This document shows positions 10,939 to 49,667 of a DNA stretch of 64,000 nt, piece by piece (the first letter of the stretch is position 1; each line of letters starts with the position of its first letter). Made by a program: the position numbers and the translations under genes. Below the pieces are notes generated by a model. The model had not been told where the DNA came from, ran no database searches, and was given only the letters and a program-made list of their open reading frames with translations. Source of the DNA: Desulforamulus ruminis DSM 2154 (GTDB lineage: Bacteria > Bacillota > Desulfotomaculia > Desulfotomaculales > Desulfotomaculaceae); contig NC_015589.1 of assembly GCF_000215085.1 (NCBI RefSeq), positions 3,050,120 through 3,114,119 on the forward strand. Reading direction: 5' to 3'.

Positions 10939-11121
10939 CCGTCGGAACCCGCTAATTTAAAGACATGTTAAAAATAGCTTCATGTCCTTTTTAATTTCCT
11001 AATTTTTCAAATCCCTTTCATTCCAAGGGTTTTATCTTTTTAAATTGTCGTCGATCCCCGGGGTTTTTTGCACTACCTACGATCGACGACAAATTTACTT
11101 AAAAAAATTTTCAAATTCTAT
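10939..11121 (-). promoter_or_regulatory. leader of CRISPR array 1
   Basis: AT-rich 183-bp region between cas2 and the first (newest) repeat. From the repeat outward it contains an inverted repeat GACATG/CATGTC (10962-10967 and 10981-10986), a second around CCCTT/AAGGG (11013-11029), and a third with 12-bp arms TTGTCGTCGATC/GATCGACGACAA (11045-11056 and 11081-11092) around a 24-nt core. The same three elements at the same distances occur before arrays 2 and 3. It should hold the array promoter and the adaptation signals. Confidence 0.85.
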
Positions 11122-11427: not shown

Positions 11428-12420
11428 TCACCATCGGGCTATAAAAGGAGTATAATCCTTTTCCCCCATCAGATGCTTTTCCAGCTTATAAAGCTCCAGA
11501 CGGATCATGCGGCGATAGGAAACGGACCGGCCAATCTCCCGGTGCTGAATGGTGGTCATTAGCTTTTTGTCTAACTCCTCGATAAAGCATCTCTTGGCCT
11601 TATCTTTAAGCAGAATTCCTTCGGTGCTTTGCTCAAAATCCTGTTTGGTAATCATTTTTTTGCCGATCAGGAAAAAGATTAACCGATCAATTAGAATGGG
11701 TTTAAAGATCTCCGCTATATCCAAATTCAGAGTAAAGCGCCGAAAATTCGTAGCGTGAAGAAAGCCAATCCGGGGGTCCAGATGGGTTTTATAAATTTCA
11801 CTTAAACAGATGGAATACATTAAAGAATTGCCAAAGCTGATGAGGGTGTTTAAATAATTTTTCGGGGGACGGCGGCTTCTTTCCTGAAAAATAAAGTCGG
11901 GATGGCCGATGATGGCGTCAAAGGCCCGGTAATAATGATCCCGGATGTTGCCTTCAATGGCCATCAGGGCTGCAATGTCCCGGCAGTCATCCACAGAGGG
12001 AAGCAGTCTTTCCACGGCGGCAATAAATTCACCCACCTCTTTCTCCCGGCCATGATAATATTTCAGCACCTGGCGAATATTTTTTGCCGCCCCCCGCACA
12101 AACTCCCGGGCAATAGCTAATCGCCGCTCCTCATCCAAATAATGCTCCGACTGCCGCAGGATCATATAGCCGGAACTCAAATGCTCCCGGGGATAGAAAG
12201 TGCCCATATAGTAACCATGGTGGCTGAAGTAGTGCAGGATAATCTCCTTTTGGGAAAGGAATTCCAGAAGTTTTTTGTTAAACTGTACTTCCCCGAAAAT
12301 CATGATCTCCCCGGTATCTTCAACGGGAAGAAACCGCCGCCCGGTTTCTGTCTCAAAGTATAAGGTGTTGTCTTTGCGATGGATTTCCCCGTTGGAGAAA
12401 ATATACAGCGTCTTTTTCAC
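11428..12420 (-). CDS. cas1: CRISPR-associated integrase Cas1 (type I-B)
   Basis: About 330 residues, the metal-dependent integrase of spacer acquisition. Catalytic residues are visible: Glu156 in MAIEGNIRDHYYRAF, His222 in IGFLHATNFRR, and Asp234/Glu237 in LNLDIAEIFKP. The N-terminal beta domain begins KKTLYIFSNGEIHRKDN, typical of subtype I-B. The frame is open to 12429 (MMRVKK), but GTG 12420 is better spaced from GGAG and matches the usual family start. It lies between cas4 and cas2, the standard adaptation module. The catalytic set is complete, so the adaptation machinery appears functional. Confidence 0.96.
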   Translation of the reverse strand: MKKTLYIFSNGEIHRKDNTLYFETETGRRFLPVEDTGEIMIFGEVQFNKKLLEFLSQKEIILHYFSHHGYYMGTFYPREHLSSGYMILRQSEHYLDEERRLAIAREFVRGAAKNIRQVLKYYHGREKEVGEFIAAVERLLPSVDDCRDIAALMAIEGNIRDHYYRAFDAIIGHPDFIFQERSRRPPKNYLNTLISFGNSLMYSICLSEIYKTHLDPRIGFLHATNFRRFTLNLDIAEIFKPILIDRLIFFLIGKKMITKQDFEQSTEGILLKDKAKRCFIEELDKKLMTTIQHREIGRSVSYRRMIRLELYKLEKHLMGEKDYTPFIARW

Positions 12421-12440
12421 CCGCATCACTCCGTTTCTTT

Positions 12441-12947
12441 CTAAGACCAGCAGAATTCGGCATAGGCACAGTTTTTACAGAATTTAATCTTCCGGGGTTG
12501 GGGCGGTTTATCCAAGTAAACAATGCGCAAAATCTCCCGCCGCACCCGCTCCAGTTCCTGTTCCGTTTGTTCATCCATCAGGACTTCCTCCCGGACTTTT
12601 TCTTTAGGAAACCGCAGTTCCCCCCGGGCCTCAATGCCCCGCTCTTTCAGTTCACTTAAGTAAAAGGCCAACTGCATCCGGGCGCTCTCCTTGTATTTGG
12701 AGCTTTTCTTTACTTCACCGATGACCATTTGCCCGTTTTCCATATGAAAGACATCAATTTTACTGCCGCCCACACTGATTTCCTTCTTCTCACGTTGATA
12801 GGTATTCTCACCGATAAAGCGGCCCAGGGACACATTATCGTTATCCTGGTCGGGGTTGATCTGATGGCTGATCAGCCAGACCTCACGGGGGCAGATGTAA
12901 TAGTACCAGACCAATGTACCGCTTACACCGATCTCCTTTTCCGGCAC
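12441..12947 (-). CDS. cas4: CRISPR-associated exonuclease Cas4
   Basis: About 168 residues; RecB-like nuclease with a 4Fe-4S cluster, which in I-B systems trims prespacers and selects their PAM. Seen: N-terminal VSGTLVWYYYICPREVWL with the first Cys, the nuclease motif around IGEVKKSSKYKESARMQLA, and the C-terminal cluster motif FCKNCAYAEFCW. The frame stays open to 13049, but GTG 12947, preceded by AGGGGG at 7 bp, gives the family-typical N-terminus; the extra 34 residues are unlike Cas4. About 130 bp separate it from cas3, and it is 20 bp ahead of cas1. Confidence 0.94.
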   Translation of the reverse strand: MPEKEIGVSGTLVWYYYICPREVWLISHQINPDQDNDNVSLGRFIGENTYQREKKEISVGGSKIDVFHMENGQMVIGEVKKSSKYKESARMQLAFYLSELKERGIEARGELRFPKEKVREEVLMDEQTEQELERVRREILRIVYLDKPPQPRKIKFCKNCAYAEFCWS

Positions 12948-13079
12948 GGAGTATCCCCCTTTCCATAAAACAATTGGTCTATAAGATATACCTTTCTTCG
13001 AAAGCCTCAGAAAATGTTCTCGTAAAAGTAAGTCACTGCTATTTAGCAAACTAATAATTGATTGAGAGATTGTACATTA

Positions 13080-15455
13080 TTAAAAAATCATTGTTTCCCC
13101 CTCAACAACTAATCCTTTATCATCTGAATAATAACCGTCTTTTAATATCCATAGTCCTGTGTTTATTTTAAATTCATAAGCAATTTGTTGTGGATAGAAA
13201 CCCGGTTTTACAAATACATTTACTGATACCATAGCCATACGACCAGCTACCCTACGCCATGCTTCTCGTCGCTCCCAAATATTCTTTATTTCCATGATCT
13301 CGCACATATCTTGGTATAGTGTTGGATCCTGCTCTATCACCAAAAACGTATACTGCTGTTTTTCCTTACCTCGTAAAAGTTCCCGTATGGAGACATCATC
13401 TTGCCATCGTGCAAACCTTTCCAAGTGAATAAATCCAGTATCTTTCCTAACAGATAATTCTTTAAAGTAACAATCTGTCAAGGTCAGTATATCTTCTTCT
13501 AGTACTTCTTTGTATTCTTTCAGCAATCTTCTAGTAACTGAAAGATGTACCTCGTCATAAATCATTTCAGAATAACGTTTTCCCTCATCAACAATGTCAA
13601 TAATCTCTATTATTCCGCGTGTTTCTTTTCCACCCTCTCGATTACATCTCCCAGCAATTTGAATCAGACAATCTAAAGGCGCAAAATCCCTAATAATTAA
13701 ATCCATATCAATATCTACCCCTGCTTCAATACACTGGGTGGAAACTACTATACACGGATTTCCTTCTTTAATTTTGTCAATAGACTGCAAACGATTCTTA
13801 GGGGTAACATCAGCACTAATAAAAAAAAGTGGAATATCTGCAAATTCATCTTTTCCCTTACGCCAGTCATCAATATAGTCTCTAACCTTTCGTGCGCTTT
13901 TTCTTGTGTTAAAAGTCAGTAACACTCGCAATCTTTGAGTAAACCAATCATCTAATCTTTCTTCTAACTCTAAACAAAATTCATCAAGACTTATATGAGT
14001 ATTTAACCGCAGACGCAAGCAGTATCTTTTACATTGAGCAAAGTATAGATTAGGATTTTTTAATAAGGGTTCAGCATTTTTTACAAAAGGCGGTAAGGTT
14101 GCTGACATTAACAATAATTTGCTATTTCCAACTAGAGTTAATTGTTCAAATATTTCATCTAGTGGTTGCCATAACTTACATGGCAATGATTGGACTTCAT
14201 CCATTATAATAAGGGCATCGCACAGATTATGAAAACGCATTTGATATTTTGCATATGGTTCTATCAAACTAAATAAAAACTGATCATAAGTAGTAATTAT
14301 AATATCATTTCGCCATGTGTCTACTAAAAAGCTATTGTCACCTGTCGTTAGTTCAGAATCGTATACTCGATCGGATAAAGAATGACTGGTTAATAACCAT
14401 TCGCTATCGTTCTCAACTCCACCAACTCGTAATAATTTTTTATACTCATTCACTGTTTGGTCAATCACCGATAAAAAAGGCAATACTACGATAATTTTAG
14501 GTGGATGCCAATAATTATCAGTATTTTCACGTAATTTAAGCGCCCATGTTGCTGCCAATAAGGTTTTTCCTGCACCAGTTGGTGCAGTGAGGTTAAATAT
14601 TCGGCTATCTCTCTTGTTGGCAATTACTTCTACTACTTCGTTACGTATTTTTTGCCGTAGACAATTAGTATCGGTTACATCTGGTTTGCCAATACGTTTA
14701 TCTATCCATTTCGATTGCCATTGATTTACGGGACGCATAAGATATATTGCTGGGTCAGATACAGCAAGTAATGCTTTGTCAGCTTCCAGCATAATTGAGT
14801 ATATAAATTGACATTTAAGTCGAAAGGCTATAGCCTCCTGAAGATATAAATTTTTATTCTCCTTGATTAGCTTACTGTTTAAAAATTTTAAAGCCTTACG
14901 AATAAGCAATGTTATTTCCTGAGGTGAATCTCTTACCGTTTTTATTTCATTAAATTCCAAATTCACTTCTGAAGACAGTATTTCAAAATCTATTGACGAA
15001 ATTTGGCGTTGAATGGTGGAAACATTGCTACCATTAGCAAAGCGTTCAATTGCATGTTTTGTTTCATCAACAAAACCTACTCGTTGCTCGGAAAAAGTTG
15101 GCAACCGCGAATGATGACCACTAATCGCTGCAACCACCATTAAGGCATCTCGCACATCCCATTCTTGTTCCTTTGCTATAATTAAAGTTAAAAATACAGA
15201 TAACCCAGTATGTGCTTTATCACTACTATTTCCTTTATAACTCTCTGGATCTTTGATGTATTCCTGAAAGAAATCGGTTGCTTTTCCCAAGTCATGGAAT
15301 ACAGCAGTGCGTTCCATGATGTCTTGAATACGGAATGTAACTGTTCGTGACGAATGTAATTGTTGCAAAGCTCGCATAGCAATCCTGACCTGATCAATAT
15401 GCTCATGCAATAATAAATGAGGATGAGATCTCAAACTGCTATGCCCTTGGCTCAT
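13080..15455 (-). CDS. cas3: CRISPR-associated helicase-nuclease Cas3 (HD + helicase)
   Basis: A 791-residue effector nuclease/helicase that degrades DNA bound by Cascade. The HD nuclease domain is N-terminal: His54-Asp55 in AVFHDLGKATDFF, His82, and His114-His115 in ISGHHSRLP. The helicase part has Walker A at about 290-298 (TAPTGAGKTLL), a Walker B box DEVQ at 419-422, SATLPP, and motif VI IQIAGRCNREGG. The start ATG overlaps the cas5 stop by 4 bp. All catalytic motifs are intact, so interference should be active. DEVQ instead of DEVH is a small variation. Confidence 0.96.
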   Translation of the reverse strand: MSQGHSSLRSHPHLLLHEHIDQVRIAMRALQQLHSSRTVTFRIQDIMERTAVFHDLGKATDFFQEYIKDPESYKGNSSDKAHTGLSVFLTLIIAKEQEWDVRDALMVVAAISGHHSRLPTFSEQRVGFVDETKHAIERFANGSNVSTIQRQISSIDFEILSSEVNLEFNEIKTVRDSPQEITLLIRKALKFLNSKLIKENKNLYLQEAIAFRLKCQFIYSIMLEADKALLAVSDPAIYLMRPVNQWQSKWIDKRIGKPDVTDTNCLRQKIRNEVVEVIANKRDSRIFNLTAPTGAGKTLLAATWALKLRENTDNYWHPPKIIVVLPFLSVIDQTVNEYKKLLRVGGVENDSEWLLTSHSLSDRVYDSELTTGDNSFLVDTWRNDIIITTYDQFLFSLIEPYAKYQMRFHNLCDALIIMDEVQSLPCKLWQPLDEIFEQLTLVGNSKLLLMSATLPPFVKNAEPLLKNPNLYFAQCKRYCLRLRLNTHISLDEFCLELEERLDDWFTQRLRVLLTFNTRKSARKVRDYIDDWRKGKDEFADIPLFFISADVTPKNRLQSIDKIKEGNPCIVVSTQCIEAGVDIDMDLIIRDFAPLDCLIQIAGRCNREGGKETRGIIEIIDIVDEGKRYSEMIYDEVHLSVTRRLLKEYKEVLEEDILTLTDCYFKELSVRKDTGFIHLERFARWQDDVSIRELLRGKEKQQYTFLVIEQDPTLYQDMCEIMEIKNIWERREAWRRVAGRMAMVSVNVFVKPGFYPQQIAYEFKINTGLWILKDGYYSDDKGLVVEGETMIF

Positions 15456-16180
15456 AAAAACATCACTACCCTTTTGCCAATTTTGTAAGCATCCGAGGTT
15501 CTAATCATTATGGGACGCGCATTTGCTTCGAATAAATAATTGTCATGTGTGAATATCCGATTAGGTGTTACAGTTCGCGGCATTCGAAGTAATTGAATGG
15601 TAAGTGAGTTATCATATAATTCTTGAAAGTTTATATTAGCTTGTTTCTGACGAATCACATTGCTGACGGCATATACTGCCGGGTCAAGCTTTTGGACCGG
15701 TTCTGTATCAATATATTCTATCTCAGCCAGCATCTCGGAAACTCCAAGACATGGTTGGAAATGCCAGCGACGATCCTTTATTCGTTCCTCAAATTCAACA
15801 TGGTAATTATCGGGCAAGATAGCCCACACATTATAACAAGGGTTAATTAGCCATTCCTGAACAATCAACGTTGCCTGTTCCAATTTGGTATTAGCATCTT
15901 GTTTTTGGGTTCTTTTTATTATGTGTTGCAGTGGCGTAGGAGGATCTTTACGAAATTTAGCTTTATGCCAATGAGTTTTTGGCGATTTTCCACTAATCGC
16001 AAACTGGACAGGTTCTAGCAATTCTTGTGGTGTATCCTTTTCTAGGCCAAGTACAGCACCAACTATACCTAATAATACAGTCCTGGTAGGTACTGGATAG
16101 CTTAATGCACTTGTCCCTGCTTCGGCTTTCAAGAAATGGCCAAACCTACCTGATAAACGAAACTGAATCGCATTTTTCAT
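15452..16180 (-). CDS. cas5: Cascade subunit Cas5 (type I-B)
   Basis: A 242-residue RAMP-fold protein that caps the crRNA 5' handle in Cascade. The N-terminus shows the Cas5 signature: IQFRLSGRFGHFLKAEAGTS followed by SYPVPTRTVLLGIVGAVLG. Overlaps of 4 bp with cas7 upstream and cas3 downstream indicate translational coupling. Length and position (cas8-cas7-cas5-cas3) fit the I-B order. Confidence 0.94.
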   Translation of the reverse strand: MKNAIQFRLSGRFGHFLKAEAGTSALSYPVPTRTVLLGIVGAVLGLEKDTPQELLEPVQFAISGKSPKTHWHKAKFRKDPPTPLQHIIKRTQKQDANTKLEQATLIVQEWLINPCYNVWAILPDNYHVEFEERIKDRRWHFQPCLGVSEMLAEIEYIDTEPVQKLDPAVYAVSNVIRQKQANINFQELYDNSLTIQLLRMPRTVTPNRIFTHDNYLFEANARPIMIRTSDAYKIGKRVVMFL

Positions 16181-17154
16181 ACAGAGCCAACATCCTTAAG
16201 TAATTCTTCAACCTCCAATAACCTCCAATCGACCGGTATATCCTCTAATAGAGAAATATCAGTAGACTTAGCATATCGAATACGTTCAATCCGCTTTTGC
16301 TGCCCCTGAATACGTTCATGTAATTTACTTAAATCCACCTTATAATCTTCTGGCGAAGCCCAAACTTTTTCTTCTTTACCAGTAGCAGCTATTAATCTTA
16401 CGTACTCATGTAAGCGGCCAAACTGAAACTCCTCATCAGCTTTATATTCAATACTAATTAACAAGTGTGGAATTTGGCCCACCTTAGTCCTGGTATTGGC
16501 ATTAGCACGTACACCGTGCCATAAAGCTTTTAAAAATAAATCATAGTCCTCATCGCTCATCCTTGAAATTCTTGCCGAATGTTCGTTGGCAATACCAGAA
16601 AAGCCAATTAAGGCATATCTTAACCCATAATAAACTGTAAATGTTCCTTGGGTCTTGAGCTCATCACTACCAAAAGTAGTAGTACCATGAATATCAACAC
16701 TCTCTGCTTTATGTAATATTTCCCCCATATTTAATTGTACTGCTCCAGTCATCGTTTTTGGCTCTGGTTTAGGATCCCAATTATCATCTTTTTCTTTTTT
16801 AAAAGCAAATGAACTGCCAAATAATCGGGCATCAATAAATGCATTCAACAGAATGTCTACCAACGCTTTTCCTTCAACCTTTTTATTACCAGTAGTATTA
16901 AGGTAATGGACCACCCTCCCTGTCAGATTTGTAGTACGCCCTTCAATAGTATCCACTAAAATATCAAACCCACGCATTTTTAAAAAATCCCGTACAAATC
17001 TTTTCATACGAACATCAGTCACATAGTATGTACCATCAGGTAAAACTCGAGGGCGGTTTTCATCTGGATCACCATTAGGATTACCCATCTTAATATCATA
17101 GAGAAATAAGAATTCCCTGCGTCCTGATAACGTTTTTGTCTTATTTAAAGTCAT
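16177..17154 (-). CDS. cas7: Cascade backbone subunit Cas7 (Csh2-like, type I-B)
   Basis: A 325-residue RAMP protein that polymerises along the spacer part of crRNA. The N-terminus REFLFLYDIKMGNPNGDPDE followed by RPRVLPDGTYYVTDVRMKR is the Csh2 hallmark and assigns subtype I-B. ATG start with GGGAGTG upstream. It overlaps cas5 by 4 bp and lies 14 bp after cas8. Confidence 0.95.
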   Translation of the reverse strand: MTLNKTKTLSGRREFLFLYDIKMGNPNGDPDENRPRVLPDGTYYVTDVRMKRFVRDFLKMRGFDILVDTIEGRTTNLTGRVVHYLNTTGNKKVEGKALVDILLNAFIDARLFGSSFAFKKEKDDNWDPKPEPKTMTGAVQLNMGEILHKAESVDIHGTTTFGSDELKTQGTFTVYYGLRYALIGFSGIANEHSARISRMSDEDYDLFLKALWHGVRANANTRTKVGQIPHLLISIEYKADEEFQFGRLHEYVRLIAATGKEEKVWASPEDYKVDLSKLHERIQGQQKRIERIRYAKSTDISLLEDIPVDWRLLEVEELLKDVGSV

Positions 17155-17168
17155 TTTTATACACTCCC

Positions 17169-19190
17169 TTATTTATTTTTTATAGATGGAATAATAGTCT
17201 CAGTCATGGATTGTCCTAAAAGAAGATAATAGCTTGTTTGAACCTCGTCAAGGCAAATGTTATCACCTAAATTTATTCCTAATCGTCCTATTTCAGCTAC
17301 TAATTTTCGAACCTTCTCATTTCCTTCAATATCATAAGCAAAGCTTTTATCTCTTATTTTATTATATAGCTCTGGTAAATCTCTTCCTTTTAATGTAAGC
17401 CGCTTTAACCAAGTCAGCGCATTGGCACCAACATTAACACCCTTTGCTCCCTGTACCTGCAATACTTTACCGTATAATACACCTAATAAGAAAGCATAAG
17501 CTTTATCAGGACTATCAATGCCGCTTTCCGGGCCAAAATAAGGTCTAAGTTCCAGCATTGTTGGTTCAAAATAAGAAGTTTCCATTCTAAATATCCCTAC
17601 CTTTTTAAAGTAATACAACCACCAGTTTACATATTTTATCCAACCCGCTGCTGTCAAATATGGACCCTTTTTACCCAAACCCTCATATAATAGTCCATAT
17701 TGCCCGTCAGTTTTTTCAATAGCCTCCAGCCAATACCAACGTGCTGTAAGCAAAAATTCACCCCAAAATCTGTCCTTTTCCATCAAGTTTCCATGATAAA
17801 CGTTCTCAGCTAATAACCGTTTTAATTGAAATAACCGTTGACTGGCATTGACACTTTTGGCCCTTTTCCCGCCGGGTCGTTTAAAAAGAGGTTTTAATGC
17901 TTGTAATGATAATTTTGGTGTTAAATTAATTTTTGAGTTATCTAGCTGGATAGCTGGAAACAATGCATGTTTCCAAAACAGGGATTCTGTATTAATCTCT
18001 GAGAGTTCGCGTAATCGGCTAGGTAACACGTGCTCTATTGTTCCAACAACATTTTCAATGTTTTGTCCAATATCCACCCACAATATCGATAAGTTTAAAA
18101 TGCTTTTTTCCTCTTTTAACATATCAAGCAGCCAATCTTCATCGAAAGTAACATTGTCGCCCATAGATTGTATATAACGTGTAACCTGCTCTAATACTTC
18201 AATCCGTGTTTCTGGCAGTGTACCAGGTAAAAATATCGGTACTACAAGAGCATTTTCACCAGCAATCTTTGCTGTGTAAGGTATTTTGTCCTTTTGGGGA
18301 CCTCTCTTTTTTAAAACATGGTTTTTATAGATATATAATAGATCCGCGCATGCTCCGCACAAACTATACCCTTTCCAGGCTTGTTTTACATCAATACCCG
18401 GAAAAGCGCCCGCTCTGTCAGGATTTTTTATATTGATTCCCGCCCCTTTTAATCCATTGGGAAACACTAAAACATTCGATGTATTGCATAAGTAACACAT
18501 CTGGTTTTCCTTGGCTGGTGAGCTAGATGTAACATACCGCTCCCCTGCTAACTTTTCTTTTAATAAATACTTAATATATACAAGTTGTTCACCAGGGTAT
18601 TTTCCATCAGGTGTTTTAATAGTAAGAAAAACTGTGCCAGATTGTGGGCCAATCTTATCAACTACACAAGCTAGTAAATTTTTATATTTATTTTCTGCCC
18701 AATCTACCTTCGTCCCATCTAAAAATTTGATTTCTTTATACTCTAATAACATAATAATGTCTTGAAAATACCGACTCCAGGGTTTTTTCGAATCTGCAAT
18801 CTCCTTAAAATAATTAATTGTTGTTTCTAAGATTTTTTCTGAAGGTCCAGCTCCTTTATCTTTACTATAACTACGCTTTATTACTGGACCTACTTGGGCA
18901 CTCTGGGAGCCAGAAGGTTTAATAAATGGTAGTTTGTCCGCTGTACAACCGCTAGCACTATTGCTTACAGTTACGTCTTGTACTGAAACACTGACAACAT
19001 CTTCCGCATCTTTTTCTATTACATATACTTTTTCAATTCTTCCACTGTCTTCTACAAGAAGAGAAAATAATTTATGTGGCTCGTTGTTACGTAAGGACAA
19101 ATACCAGTTTTCAGGATCCACAGGAATATTTGTATTACAAAGTTCCTGCACTAGATAATCCAACCCCAAGGTCCGCATACCTACAAGCAA
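17169..19190 (-). CDS. cas8b: Cascade large subunit Cas8b (Csh1-like)
   Basis: A 673-residue large subunit, expected to recognise the PAM and recruit Cas3. It is recognised by place (between cas6 and cas7), size, and a zinc-binding pair CYLC ... CGAC (about residues 229-284: MCYLCNTSN and YSLCGACADLL), typical of Csh1. The start is TTG 19190, spaced 8 bp from GAGGAGG. The family diverges fast, so the assignment rests on context plus the Cys motif. No frameshift or internal stop. Confidence 0.9.
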   Translation of the reverse strand: MLVGMRTLGLDYLVQELCNTNIPVDPENWYLSLRNNEPHKLFSLLVEDSGRIEKVYVIEKDAEDVVSVSVQDVTVSNSASGCTADKLPFIKPSGSQSAQVGPVIKRSYSKDKGAGPSEKILETTINYFKEIADSKKPWSRYFQDIIMLLEYKEIKFLDGTKVDWAENKYKNLLACVVDKIGPQSGTVFLTIKTPDGKYPGEQLVYIKYLLKEKLAGERYVTSSSPAKENQMCYLCNTSNVLVFPNGLKGAGINIKNPDRAGAFPGIDVKQAWKGYSLCGACADLLYIYKNHVLKKRGPQKDKIPYTAKIAGENALVVPIFLPGTLPETRIEVLEQVTRYIQSMGDNVTFDEDWLLDMLKEEKSILNLSILWVDIGQNIENVVGTIEHVLPSRLRELSEINTESLFWKHALFPAIQLDNSKINLTPKLSLQALKPLFKRPGGKRAKSVNASQRLFQLKRLLAENVYHGNLMEKDRFWGEFLLTARWYWLEAIEKTDGQYGLLYEGLGKKGPYLTAAGWIKYVNWWLYYFKKVGIFRMETSYFEPTMLELRPYFGPESGIDSPDKAYAFLLGVLYGKVLQVQGAKGVNVGANALTWLKRLTLKGRDLPELYNKIRDKSFAYDIEGNEKVRKLVAEIGRLGINLGDNICLDEVQTSYYLLLGQSMTETIIPSIKNK

Positions 19191-19205
19191 GTTACCAACC
19201 TCCTC

Positions 19206-19958
19206 TCAAAATTGTTCATTTCCACTCACTACCATCTCCACACAGCCAAATCCCTGAGCGTTCTTCCCTCCCAGTCCCCCGTCCACCGCCATCTGCAGCA
19301 GTTCCGTGGGCCCGGTCAGTTCCATCAGGCCGGAGTAGCCTTTGATAATGGTTCCTTTGTAGTTGACCAGGTTCATCTTTAGATTGCCGGTTTTTCTTAC
19401 CTTGACTTCCCCGGGCGGGGCTTCCCGGTTGAAAAAGGCCTGGTATTTCTTGCGCAGGTTGTTCTCAATCAGCCCGCTATAATCCGGGTCTCCGGGCTGA
19501 AAGTAGCAGGTGTATTTCCGTCCGTCCAGCCGGCGCATGGTGCTGTAGGCTACCACCGGGGATAGGGTTCTCAGGAGTACCTTTTCTCCCCGTACGGTGA
19601 ACTGCCGGACGGTGACGGCTTTGACTTCCGCAAAGTGGCTGCCCAGCCGGATTTGTCCCCGGGTCAGGAACCCGTTGGCAATGGACTGGCAGAAATCGTT
19701 TACCGGGGAGGAAAGGGTCAGGCTCACATCCCCGGTGAACCGGAGGGTGTTTTTGTCCCGATTGGCCTCAAACCGTCCGCTTACTCTGGAGAATGTAAAC
19801 AGCTTAAACCTGCGGCTGCCGCTTTCATAGCCTTTATCATGCAGAAAAACCGCCAGTTCCGGATCAATGGTTCCGTATACTGCGGCTTGTACTAAATGAT
19901 TATAGTGAACCGGCAATTCCAGTTCTTTTTGTGGGGTCAGGGTAATAAACAGGTGCAT
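19206..19958 (-). CDS. cas6: CRISPR RNA endoribonuclease Cas6
   Basis: A 250-residue RAMP endonuclease that cuts the repeat RNA to leave an 8-nt 5' handle. Starts MHLFITLTPQKELELPVHYN; the N-terminal His residues (His18, His20) and Tyr19 may contribute to the active site. The C-terminal glycine-rich loop GGLGGKNAQGFGCVEM is the Cas6 signature. First gene of the operon. Codon and base composition are more GC-rich than in cas8, cas7, cas5 and cas3. One Cas6 would have to process the three related repeats, which share the 3' half TATAAGG and end in TTGAAAC. Confidence 0.95.
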   Translation of the reverse strand: MHLFITLTPQKELELPVHYNHLVQAAVYGTIDPELAVFLHDKGYESGSRRFKLFTFSRVSGRFEANRDKNTLRFTGDVSLTLSSPVNDFCQSIANGFLTRGQIRLGSHFAEVKAVTVRQFTVRGEKVLLRTLSPVVAYSTMRRLDGRKYTCYFQPGDPDYSGLIENNLRKKYQAFFNREAPPGEVKVRKTGNLKMNLVNYKGTIIKGYSGLMELTGPTELLQMAVDGGLGGKNAQGFGCVEMVVSGNEQF

Positions 19959-40965: not shown

Positions 40966-41212
40966 TAAAAAAATAGATTTATAATAAAGGACTTTATAAT
41001 ATTATGCAGAAAAATTTTATTTAGCATTGAAAATGGAGTCATTATTTTCCTCCAAAATTTTGTCGTCGATCGGAGGTAGTGCAAAAATCCCCGGGGATCG
41101 ACGACAATTTGAAAAAGTAGAGCCCTTATGGTTAAAGGGTTTTACAAAATCAGGGAACCCAATAGACATGTTCGCCATTTTAACATGTCTTTAAATTAGC
41201 CCCCTCCCACGG
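40966..41212 (+). promoter_or_regulatory. dacF upstream region and leader of CRISPR array 2
   Basis: Leader elements in order towards the array: TTGTCGTCGATC (41060-41071), 24-nt core beginning GGAGGTAGTGCAAAAA, GATCGACGACAA (41096-41107); a CCCTT/AAGGG hairpin near 41123-41140; AGACATGTT/AACATGTCT (41164-41172 and 41182-41190), ending 23 bp (from CATGTC) before the first repeat. The same elements precede arrays 1 and 3. Confidence 0.85.
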
Positions 41213-42905
41213 GTTTTTAGCCTACCTATAAGGGATTGAAACGAGGGAGAACACAATGGACTGGAGCGGACAGAAAAGTTTTTAGCCTACCTATAAGGGA
41301 TTGAAACTCCGTTCCTAAACAACATAGGTCTTCCTTTTTTAATGCGTTTTTAGCCTACCTATAAGGGATTGAAACTCTTCTCCAATCGCTCCATTTCTTT
41401 TTCTAACTCCGTTTTTAGCCTACCTATAAGGGATTGAAACAGACGGGAACCATCGAATAGAGTAGCATCTACCGCCGGGGTTTTTAGCCTACCTATAAGG
41501 GATTGAAACGCTGTTCATCAGTTAGGGTATTGAGAGCTGCGATTTCCGTTTTTAGCCTACCTATAAGGGATTGAAACTTGCTTAAACTGGATGAAAAAAC
41601 AGGGTCTATTGAGTTTTTAGCCTACCTATAAGGGATTGAAACCAGATGTCATATCCGACTATGTCAGACCACCCAAAACGTTTTTAGCCTACCTATAAGG
41701 GATTGAAACCAGTCAAATCAAACTCCACCACATCATCAAACTTTCCGTTTTTAGCCTACCTATAAGGGATTGAAACTTGTTTCGCCAACCACGTACTGGA
41801 AACGAGCATCGTGGGTTTTTAGCCTACCTATAAGGGATTGAAACTCCGAGGCGGGAAGCTATATGGTACGTCAATCAGAGTTTTTAGCCTACCTATAAGG
41901 GATTGAAACCTAGATCGTCCTCATCGTCTGTGGCATCAATTTCAGTTTTTAGCCTACCTATAAGGGATTGAAACATGGTTATGTTTATATCGAGTCCCCA
42001 AGTAATACTCGTCGTTTTTAGCCTACCTATAAGGGATTGAAACGTGGTTTCTTTGCTTTACGCCATTGCTCAATAATTTGTTTTTAGCCTACCTATAAGG
42101 GATTGAAACATCTTTTCGGCGTCCGTCTCATACTGCCATCGGTCAGTTTTTAGCCTACCTATAAGGGATTGAAACTACATGATTGGGATGATTATGCCGG
42201 AAAACTTATGGTTTTTAGCCTACCTATAAGGGATTGAAACTCCGTTGGTATAATTAGCTTGGTTGCACCACATGCAACGTTTTTAGCCTACCTATAAGGG
42301 ATTGAAACTTGAAAGCTCTCTTAATACCTCAACAATACTCTTATTGTTTTTAGCCTACCTATAAGGGATTGAAACATCAGATTGGCTTGATCTTTCATTT
42401 CCACCCTCCCTGTTTTTAGCCTACCTATAAGGGATTGAAACTACCGTAATCAACGTTTATAGACTGACCGCCTTGGTCATGTTTTTAGCCTACCTATAAG
42501 GGATTGAAACAGAAGTCTATCCCCATATTAAAGATGGATGAGGAAAGTTTTTAGCCTACCTATAAGGGATTGAAACTTTCTTCTCGGCATCATCCATCCC
42601 TCCCTCGGAAGTTTTTAGCCTACCTATAAGGGATTGAAACACTTCTACCTCGACATTCACTACAATGCCGGGGTACTGTTTTTAGCCTACCTATAAGGGA
42701 TTGAAACTTGGCAAGAATTGCTTGTTTTCCTCTGTTTCCGAAGTTTTTAGCCTACCTATAAGGGATTGAAACAGATATGGCAACTGCAAAAAGTATGGCT
42801 GTCCGTAAATGTTTTTAGCCTACCTATAAGGGATTGAAACTGGTTTCAACCCTTGATGGTCGCTTCTTAAAAAACGTTTTTAGCCTACCTATAAGGAGTA
42901 AGAAC
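41213..42905 (+). CRISPR. CRISPR array 2: 26 repeats, 25 spacers
   Basis: I count 26 copies of a 30-bp repeat that begins GTTTTTAGCCTACC and ends TATAAGGGATTGAAAC, with spacers of 34-40 bp. The last copy (42876-42905) is degenerate at its 3' end (AAGGAGTAAGAAC), marking the old end, so the leader is on the left and transcription is on the plus strand. The repeat differs from array 1 and array 3 mainly in the 5' half. No cas gene is nearby; the operon at 11-20 kb probably supplies the proteins. Confidence 0.98.
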
Positions 42906-49342: not shown

Positions 49343-49667
49343 GCCTTACTATTGAAAATTAGCAATAAGGGGTCAGCCCTCCGTCCTGATAAAAATTAAT
49401 TTTGGATAGAGGATTTTTAAATATTAAGAAGAAGGAATTTACAAATATCTACTGAATAAGGGATTGATCACTTTTATTTCCCCTTTACATTTGCAAATTT
49501 TCGTTGGTTTAAATTGTCGTCGATCGCAGGTAGTGCAAAAACCCCCGGGGATCGACGACAATTTAAAAACATAAAACCCTTGGAATGAAAGGGTTTTGAA
49601 AAATCAGGAAGCAAAAGCGGACATGAATCTATTTTTAACATGTCTTATATTTAGCGGGCTGCGACGG
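49343..49667 (+). promoter_or_regulatory. intergenic region with leader of CRISPR array 3
   Basis: Leader elements towards the array: TTGTCGTCGATC (49514-49525), 24-nt core starting GCAGGTAGTGCAAAAA, GATCGACGACAA (49550-49561); AACCCTT/AAGGGTT (49575-49594); GACATG/CATGTC (49620-49625 and 49639-49644), ending 23 bp before the first repeat. The order and distances equal those of arrays 1 and 2. The first 170 bp show no further feature. Confidence 0.85.

What the first reader, a model, noticed from the sequence alone, without database searches (positions are those of the whole stretch)
41123..41212. Two further position-locked inverted repeats between the distal element and the first repeat
Towards the repeat each leader has a CCCTT/AAGGG dyad (11013-11029, about 41123-41140, 49575-49594) and then GACATG/CATGTC. 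The latter ends exactly 23 bp before the first repeat in all three arrays (10962, 41189 and 49644 against repeat edges 10938, 41213 and 49668). In array 2 the arms extend to AGACATGTT/AACATGTCT. Three nested dyads at fixed distances look like an ordered nucleoprotein platform for leader-end integration.
Basis: partly seen in the sequence, partly recalled or inferred. Interest (0 to 1): 0.6.

Follow-up and report, generated by a model that had tools for sequence, protein, structure and literature searches.

The report
Unconserved dyads in a phased CRISPR leader
Two short inverted repeats beside three CRISPR arrays are real but found only in those three leaders; what evolution keeps is a distant 44-bp element held at a helix-phased distance from the first repeat, with this stretch as spacer DNA whose length matters more than its sequence.

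Summary
CCCTT-N7-AAGGG and GACATG-N13-CATGTC are present in all three leaders, and the second ends exactly 23 bp before the first repeat each time. Sharing two dyads exceeds chance modestly (p about 0.001-0.02). The interpretation of these two dyads fails. Three further array leaders in the same genome and nine related leaders lack them. With arrays 1-3 removed, the arms pair at chance (22 vs 23.6 expected; 20 vs 18.2), and in each dyad only the right arm is kept. Across 91 leaders, long dyads (arms of 8 bp or more) are as common as in shuffled sequence. Arrays lacking the dyads still carry many uniform repeats.

What is conserved flanks them. Upstream is a rigid 44-bp inverted repeat (GTCGTCGA-N28-TCGACGAC), found in about a quarter of sampled species of the phylum and associated with Cas1b (p=1e-9). 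At the junction is a -28..-1 motif. Their separation is quantised: period 11.85 bp (95% 11.55-12.15), confirmed in a held-out set (p about 1e-7) and close to the in vivo lac-loop helical repeat (11-11.6 bp). I read 41106-41212 as a mostly sequence-free, length-phased linker inside a looped adaptation complex. That mechanism is inferred; the phasing and the lack of dyad conservation are shown.

The parts
41062..41105 (+). Distal 44-bp inverted-repeat element of array 2 leader (GTCGTCGA-N28-TCGACGAC)
41106..41212 (+). 107-bp linker of array 2 leader; length class about 108-109, sequence largely unconstrained except the last 28 bp
41123..41139 (+). Dyad 2, CCCTT-N7-AAGGG (array 2); right arm kept in the six own-genome leaders, left arm not
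41165..41189 (+). Dyad 3, GACATG-N13-CATGTC; arms extend to 9 bp (AGACATGTT/AACATGTCT) in array 2
41185..41212 (+). Proximal conserved leader motif, -28 to -1 (window: CATGTCTTTAAATTAGC...CACGG; relatives: CCTTATTTTTAGG...GACGG)
41213..41242 (+). First repeat of array 2 (Rfam CRISPR-DR2 on opposite strand)
11047..11090 (-). Distal element of array 1 leader
10939..11046 (-). 108-bp linker of array 1 with dyad 2 (11013-11029) and dyad 3 (10962-10986)
49516..49559 (+). Distal element of array 3 leader
49560..49667 (+). 108-bp linker of array 3 with dyad 2 (49577-49593, arms to 9 bp at 49573-49597) and dyad 3 (49620-49644)
11428..19958 (-). Type I-B cas operon: cas1b, cas4, cas3, cas5, cas7/csh2, cas8b-like csh1, cas6 (cas2-like ORF between cas1 and array 1, not tested by profile)
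   Evidence: cas2 from reading

Best explanation
The stretch is the linker of a type I-B CRISPR leader. Two flanking sites are under selection: a rigid 44-bp distal inverted repeat (probably the binding site of a dimeric protein or of the Cas1-Cas2-Cas4 complex) and a proximal motif ending at the leader-repeat junction, where Cas1-Cas2 would cut. The linker is bent or looped so that both sites face the same complex. Its length is therefore kept in steps of one helical turn of in vivo DNA (about 11.5-11.9 bp), while its sequence drifts. The two dyads are shared by three paralogous leaders that sit in one length class, which is why they look position-locked; they are not maintained as dyads. Shown: dyads not conserved, element rigid and widespread, spacing phased. 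Inferred: looping, the bound protein, a role in adaptation.
For: Left arms diverge while right arms stay in six own-genome leaders: dyad 2 left/right identity 0.44/0.93, dyad 3 0.54/0.69, linker mean 0.57. Excluding arrays 1-3, Watson-Crick pairs at the dyad positions in 12 related leaders are 22 vs 23.6 expected and 20 vs 18.2; in 90 leaders 1.30 vs 1.22 of 5 and 1.69 vs 1.58 of 6. Dyads with arms >=8 bp in 91 linkers: 8 observed, 8.2 expected. Mean RNA-fold z of linkers -0.31 and -0.41. Spacing: 52 genus-collapsed leaders R=0.60, p<1/5000; held-out 28 leaders at pre-fixed period and phase p=6e-8, family-collapsed p=1e-7; new classes at 156 and 168 bp match the prediction. Every hit is 44 bp when gaps of 18-40 were allowed. 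Element in 40 of 66 cas1b-positive vs 3 of 47 negative genomes, p=1e-9. In vivo lac-loop repeat 11.60 bp (PMC1762422) and 11 bp (PMC8501960).
Against: No binding or adaptation experiment. The shared dyads exceed chance within arrays 1-3, so some lineage-specific use is possible. Pairing of dyad 3 with arrays 1-3 included gives p=0.006, driven by the three paralogues. The fitted period is above the 10.5 bp of relaxed DNA and slightly above most lac values. Own leader 5 has lost the left arm of the distal element, yet its array has at least 23 uniform repeats. Weak AAGGG/GGTTT enrichment 16-45 bp after the element hints at a one-sided motif in the linker.
Confidence: 0.72

Rival explanations
1. 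One reading: dyads 2 and 3 are two further protein sites of an ordered integration platform, here a lineage-specific version used by arrays 1-3 only.
For: Both dyads shared by three leaders beyond chance (p 0.0008-0.024); 9-bp versions in arrays 2 and 3; conserved leader inverted repeats are known in type I-F (PMC12259127) and C. difficile I-B (PMC8406132).
Against: Not kept in three own-genome leaders with uniform arrays, nor in congeners beside cas1b; pairing at chance elsewhere; left arms diverge faster than right arms.
Confidence: 0.13
2. The dyads act as RNA hairpins, mainly weak intrinsic terminators that stop transcripts crossing between the array and its neighbours.
For: Hairpins of -6.5 to -14.1 kcal/mol (dyad 2) and -6.4 to -8.7 (dyad 3), most better than nearly all shuffles; dyad 2 is terminator-like with a T-rich tail in all three leaders, always on the strand opposite to array transcription; some differences between arrays are A-U to G-U and keep RNA pairing.
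Against: Linker RNA structure is not general (mean z -0.31/-0.41) and absent in array 1 as a whole (z -0.68); other own leaders lose it; stems have only 3 G-C pairs.
Confidence: 0.1
3. GACATG-N13-CATGTC is an operator for a regulator specific to these arrays.
For: Exact matches only at these three leaders in 3.97 Mb.
Against: No copy at the cas operon or elsewhere; one-mismatch matches (4 places) are near the control count; paralogy alone explains the three.
Confidence: 0.05

Closest known systems
Sulfolobus islandicus type I-A leader: Csa3a distal motif (-143 to -94) and Cas1 proximal motif (-25 to +7) (PMC9456107)
   Same: Two-site layout at almost the same distances; distal motif mutation cut multi-spacer uptake 15-200 fold there
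   Different: Different subtype and domain; no csa3a shown here; the 44-bp element and its phasing are not described in the passages read
IHF/upstream-motif leaders of type I-E and I-F (PMC12259127; Santiago-Frangos 2021 known to me only from memory and its citation)
   Same: Leader folded so that an upstream motif meets Cas1-Cas2; inverted repeats and phasing matter in I-F
   Different: No IHF site sought or found here; type I-B with Cas4; distal motif 108-152 bp from the repeat and in several length classes
Clostridioides difficile 630 type I-B leaders with two conserved inverted-repeat motifs upstream of every array (PMC8406132)
   Same: Same subtype, conserved leader inverted repeats; adaptation shown in that species
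   Different: Their sequences are in a supplement I could not read, so identity with the 44-bp element is untested
In vivo lac repressor DNA loops (PMC1762422, PMC8501960)
   Same: Preferred spacings separated by 11-11.6 bp in living cells
   Different: Transcription repression, experimentally measured; here only natural spacing statistics

Membership tests
Type I-B CRISPR leader | Directly precedes an array of uniform 30-bp repeats | tested here: met
Type I-B CRISPR leader | Genome carries type I-B cas1b, cas4, cas3, cas5, cas7, cas8b, cas6 | tested here: met
   (cas1b and csh2 over cut-off; cas5h and csh1 below cut-off but best hits)
Type I-B CRISPR leader | Directs integration of new spacers | not testable with these tools
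   needs an adaptation assay; uniform leader-end repeats are compatible
   8 observed, 8.2 expected
Helix-phased distal leader element | Element-to-repeat spacing clusters at multiples of a helical turn | tested here: met
Helix-phased distal leader element | Bound by adaptation or DNA-bending protein | not testable with these tools
   none
Intrinsic terminator (dyad 2) | G+C-rich stem followed by a T run | tested here: inconclusive
   terminator-like, antisense to the array, only 3 G-C pairs

The most novel reading that the evidence does not exclude
In a widespread group of bacterial CRISPR leaders (type I-B where cas genes were examined), a rigid 44-bp distal inverted repeat must lie on the same helical face as the integration site. 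The leader linker evolves by whole turns of underwound in vivo DNA (about 11.5-11.9 bp), showing that spacer integration in these bacteria uses a looped complex.
Probability: 0.6. Interest if true: 0.72.

Novelty: new variant of a known kind. Interest (0 to 1): 0.5.

Why it matters
How Cas1-Cas2-Cas4 finds the leader end in bacteria that do not use IHF is an open question. The dyads in the finding do not answer it. The surrounding anatomy does give a directly testable rule: a fixed 44-bp element, a -28..-1 junction motif, and a linker whose length is quantised by the in vivo helical repeat. Half-turn insertions should abolish adaptation and full-turn insertions should restore it. The analysis also shows that a 'position-locked' motif in a few paralogous leaders is weak evidence for function.

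Tried and rejected
General dyad enrichment in linkers: none. Column-pair covariation scan over 90 leaders: the top element-anchored excess (z about 5, columns 27-33 with 45-51) has almost no perfect helices and was taken as shared ancestry. Pair counts on the first 10 leaders gave a hint for dyad 3 (8/500 shuffles) that disappeared once arrays 1-3 were excluded. Compensatory change C-G to T-A in dyad 2 of congener G004 (AAATCC/GGATTT) looked promising but is isolated. RNA structure of the leader: not general. Distal element as an RNA hairpin: disfavoured, since internal length never varies and pair 9-36 is C-A in half of 125 distinct elements. Sigma-70 promoter overlapping the dyads: none found in the linkers. 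Global identity clustering to remove redundancy failed because A+T-rich linkers align at 57% by chance; genus and family collapsing was used instead. Literature search for the element sequence found nothing relevant. The catalogue of leader motifs (PMC12171695) and the phasing paper (PMC8552246) are not held, so prior description of the element cannot be excluded.

Full report
Setting. The window lies at 3,050,120-3,114,119 of a 3.97-Mb genome. It holds a type I-B cas operon (11428-19958, minus strand) and three arrays of 26-50 repeats. Repeats differ between arrays but are nearly uniform within each.

The observation. The second ends exactly 23 bp before the first repeat in all three leaders. 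Arms of 5-6 bp are ordinary in one A+T-rich leader; the 9-bp forms (dyad 3 in array 2, dyad 2 in array 3) have p about 0.01-0.02. Two dyads shared by all three leaders have p 0.0008-0.002 when alignment columns are permuted and 0.004-0.024 when blocks of four are permuted. These thresholds were chosen after seeing the data.

Are they kept? Three more leaders of the same kind exist in the genome (L009-L011). Aligned with arrays 1-3, the left arm of dyad 2 has 44% pairwise identity but its right arm 93%; for dyad 3 the figures are 54% and 69%, against 57% for the linker. Symmetric constraint would act on both arms. Adding congeners and other leaders of the same length class (15 in all) and excluding arrays 1-3, Watson-Crick pairs at the dyad positions are 22 of 60 (23.6 expected from re-paired arms) and 20 of 72 (18.2 expected). 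In 90 leaders from many taxa the figures are again at chance. Perfect dyads with arms of 8 bp or more number 8 in 91 linkers, with 8.2 expected. Linker RNA folding is near neutral.

Are those other arrays alive? Own arrays 4 and 5 have 20 and at least 23 repeats, and arrays of G004, G006, G008, G043 and G072 have at least 13-21 nearly identical repeats, several next to cas1b.

What is kept. Most hits with enough downstream sequence precede a repeat array. When the inner gap was free between 18 and 40 bp, every hit was 44 bp long. Its presence goes with cas1b: 40 of 66 against 3 of 47 genomes, p=1e-9. The inner positions pair poorly, so a protein site with two half-sites fits better than an RNA hairpin. 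At the other end, positions -28/-27 (AA), -24/-23, -17, -14 to -11, -8 and -4 to -1 (ending GG) are the most conserved; congeners read CCTTATTTTTAGG...GACGG. The right arm of dyad 3 abuts and partly overlaps this motif.

Phasing. The distance from element to repeat falls into classes near 84, 97, 108, 121, 133 and 145 bp. After collapsing to one value per genus and class (52 values) the periodicity is R=0.60 at 11.9 bp, beyond 5,000 smoothed controls. A held-out set was then gathered. With sequence duplicates removed (28 leaders), the test at the earlier period and phase gives p=6e-8, and two further classes appear where predicted, at 156 and 168 bp. Collapsing by family gives p=1e-7. The joint period is 11.85 bp, 95% 11.55-12.15. 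Differences between classes within a genus or family (10-13, 21-24, 46-48) fit 11.5 bp best of the four periods tried. Reported in vivo helical repeats of lac loops are 11.60 (PMC1762422) and about 11 with maxima near 133 and 144 bp (PMC8501960). Relaxed B-DNA at 10.5 bp fits worse (R=0.38). Diverse taxa share each class and single genera span several classes, so common descent alone does not explain the pattern, although relatedness is only partly controlled.

Mechanism. The best reading is that the distal element and the junction are contacted by one looped or bent complex during adaptation, and that the linker serves for length and bending. The S. islandicus I-A leader, with a distal Csa3a motif at -143..-94 and a proximal Cas1 motif at -25..+7, is a close functional parallel (PMC9456107). 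That is what it works like; membership in that mechanism is not shown, and no binding protein is known here. The two dyads are then features of a recently shared linker. Because all six leaders of this genome carry linkers of 107-109 bp, anything common to paralogues appears position-locked.

Residual possibilities. A lineage-specific use of the dyads in arrays 1-3 is not excluded. Dyad 2 is terminator-like on the strand opposite to array transcription in all three leaders, and the dyads form hairpins of up to -14.1 kcal/mol. The exact dyad 3 occurs nowhere else in the genome, so a broader regulon is unlikely.

Limits. Scans required near-exact element arms, so arm variation is under-sampled. 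Repeat starts were located by similarity to this repeat family; leaders with other repeats were dropped. Two papers most likely to have catalogued the element could not be read, and C. difficile I-B leaders are reported to hold two conserved inverted repeats (PMC8406132). Novelty of the element itself is therefore uncertain; I found no report of the spacing rule in the papers I could search.

Noticed in passing
L010:423-466 (G000:C1:1799922-1799965): The distal element of own leader 5 has lost its left arm (TATGAGAGACAACAG...) while the right half is intact; its array still has at least 23 uniform repeats, so it is a natural test of whether one half-site suffices.
   Followed up: partly
L012 (G000:C1:1100410-1102600, minus): An array of the same repeat type whose first repeat is truncated and whose upstream has no distal element; probably an orphan that lost its leader.
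   Followed up: partly
window:10871-10908: The first (newest) spacer of array 1 contains TTGTCGTCGG-TATAA-GCCGACGAC, a palindrome resembling the arms of the distal element; its source was not sought.
   Followed up: no
L013 (G001:C27, downstream of the element at 66306): A congener array with an altered repeat GTTTTTAGCCTACCTATCCTGAAAATTAAA, whose 3' half no longer matches the family.
   Followed up: no
G259:C1:717683-739999: Ten copies of the distal element within 22 kb of one genome, suggesting a dense cluster of arrays.
   Followed up: no
linkers, +16 to +45 after the element, e.g. window:41121-41150: AAGGG, GGTTT, CCTTG and AATCC are enriched there over the next 30 bp (e.g. AAGGG 16 vs 6 leaders), a possible one-sided motif that would explain the kept right arm of dyad 2.
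   Followed up: partly
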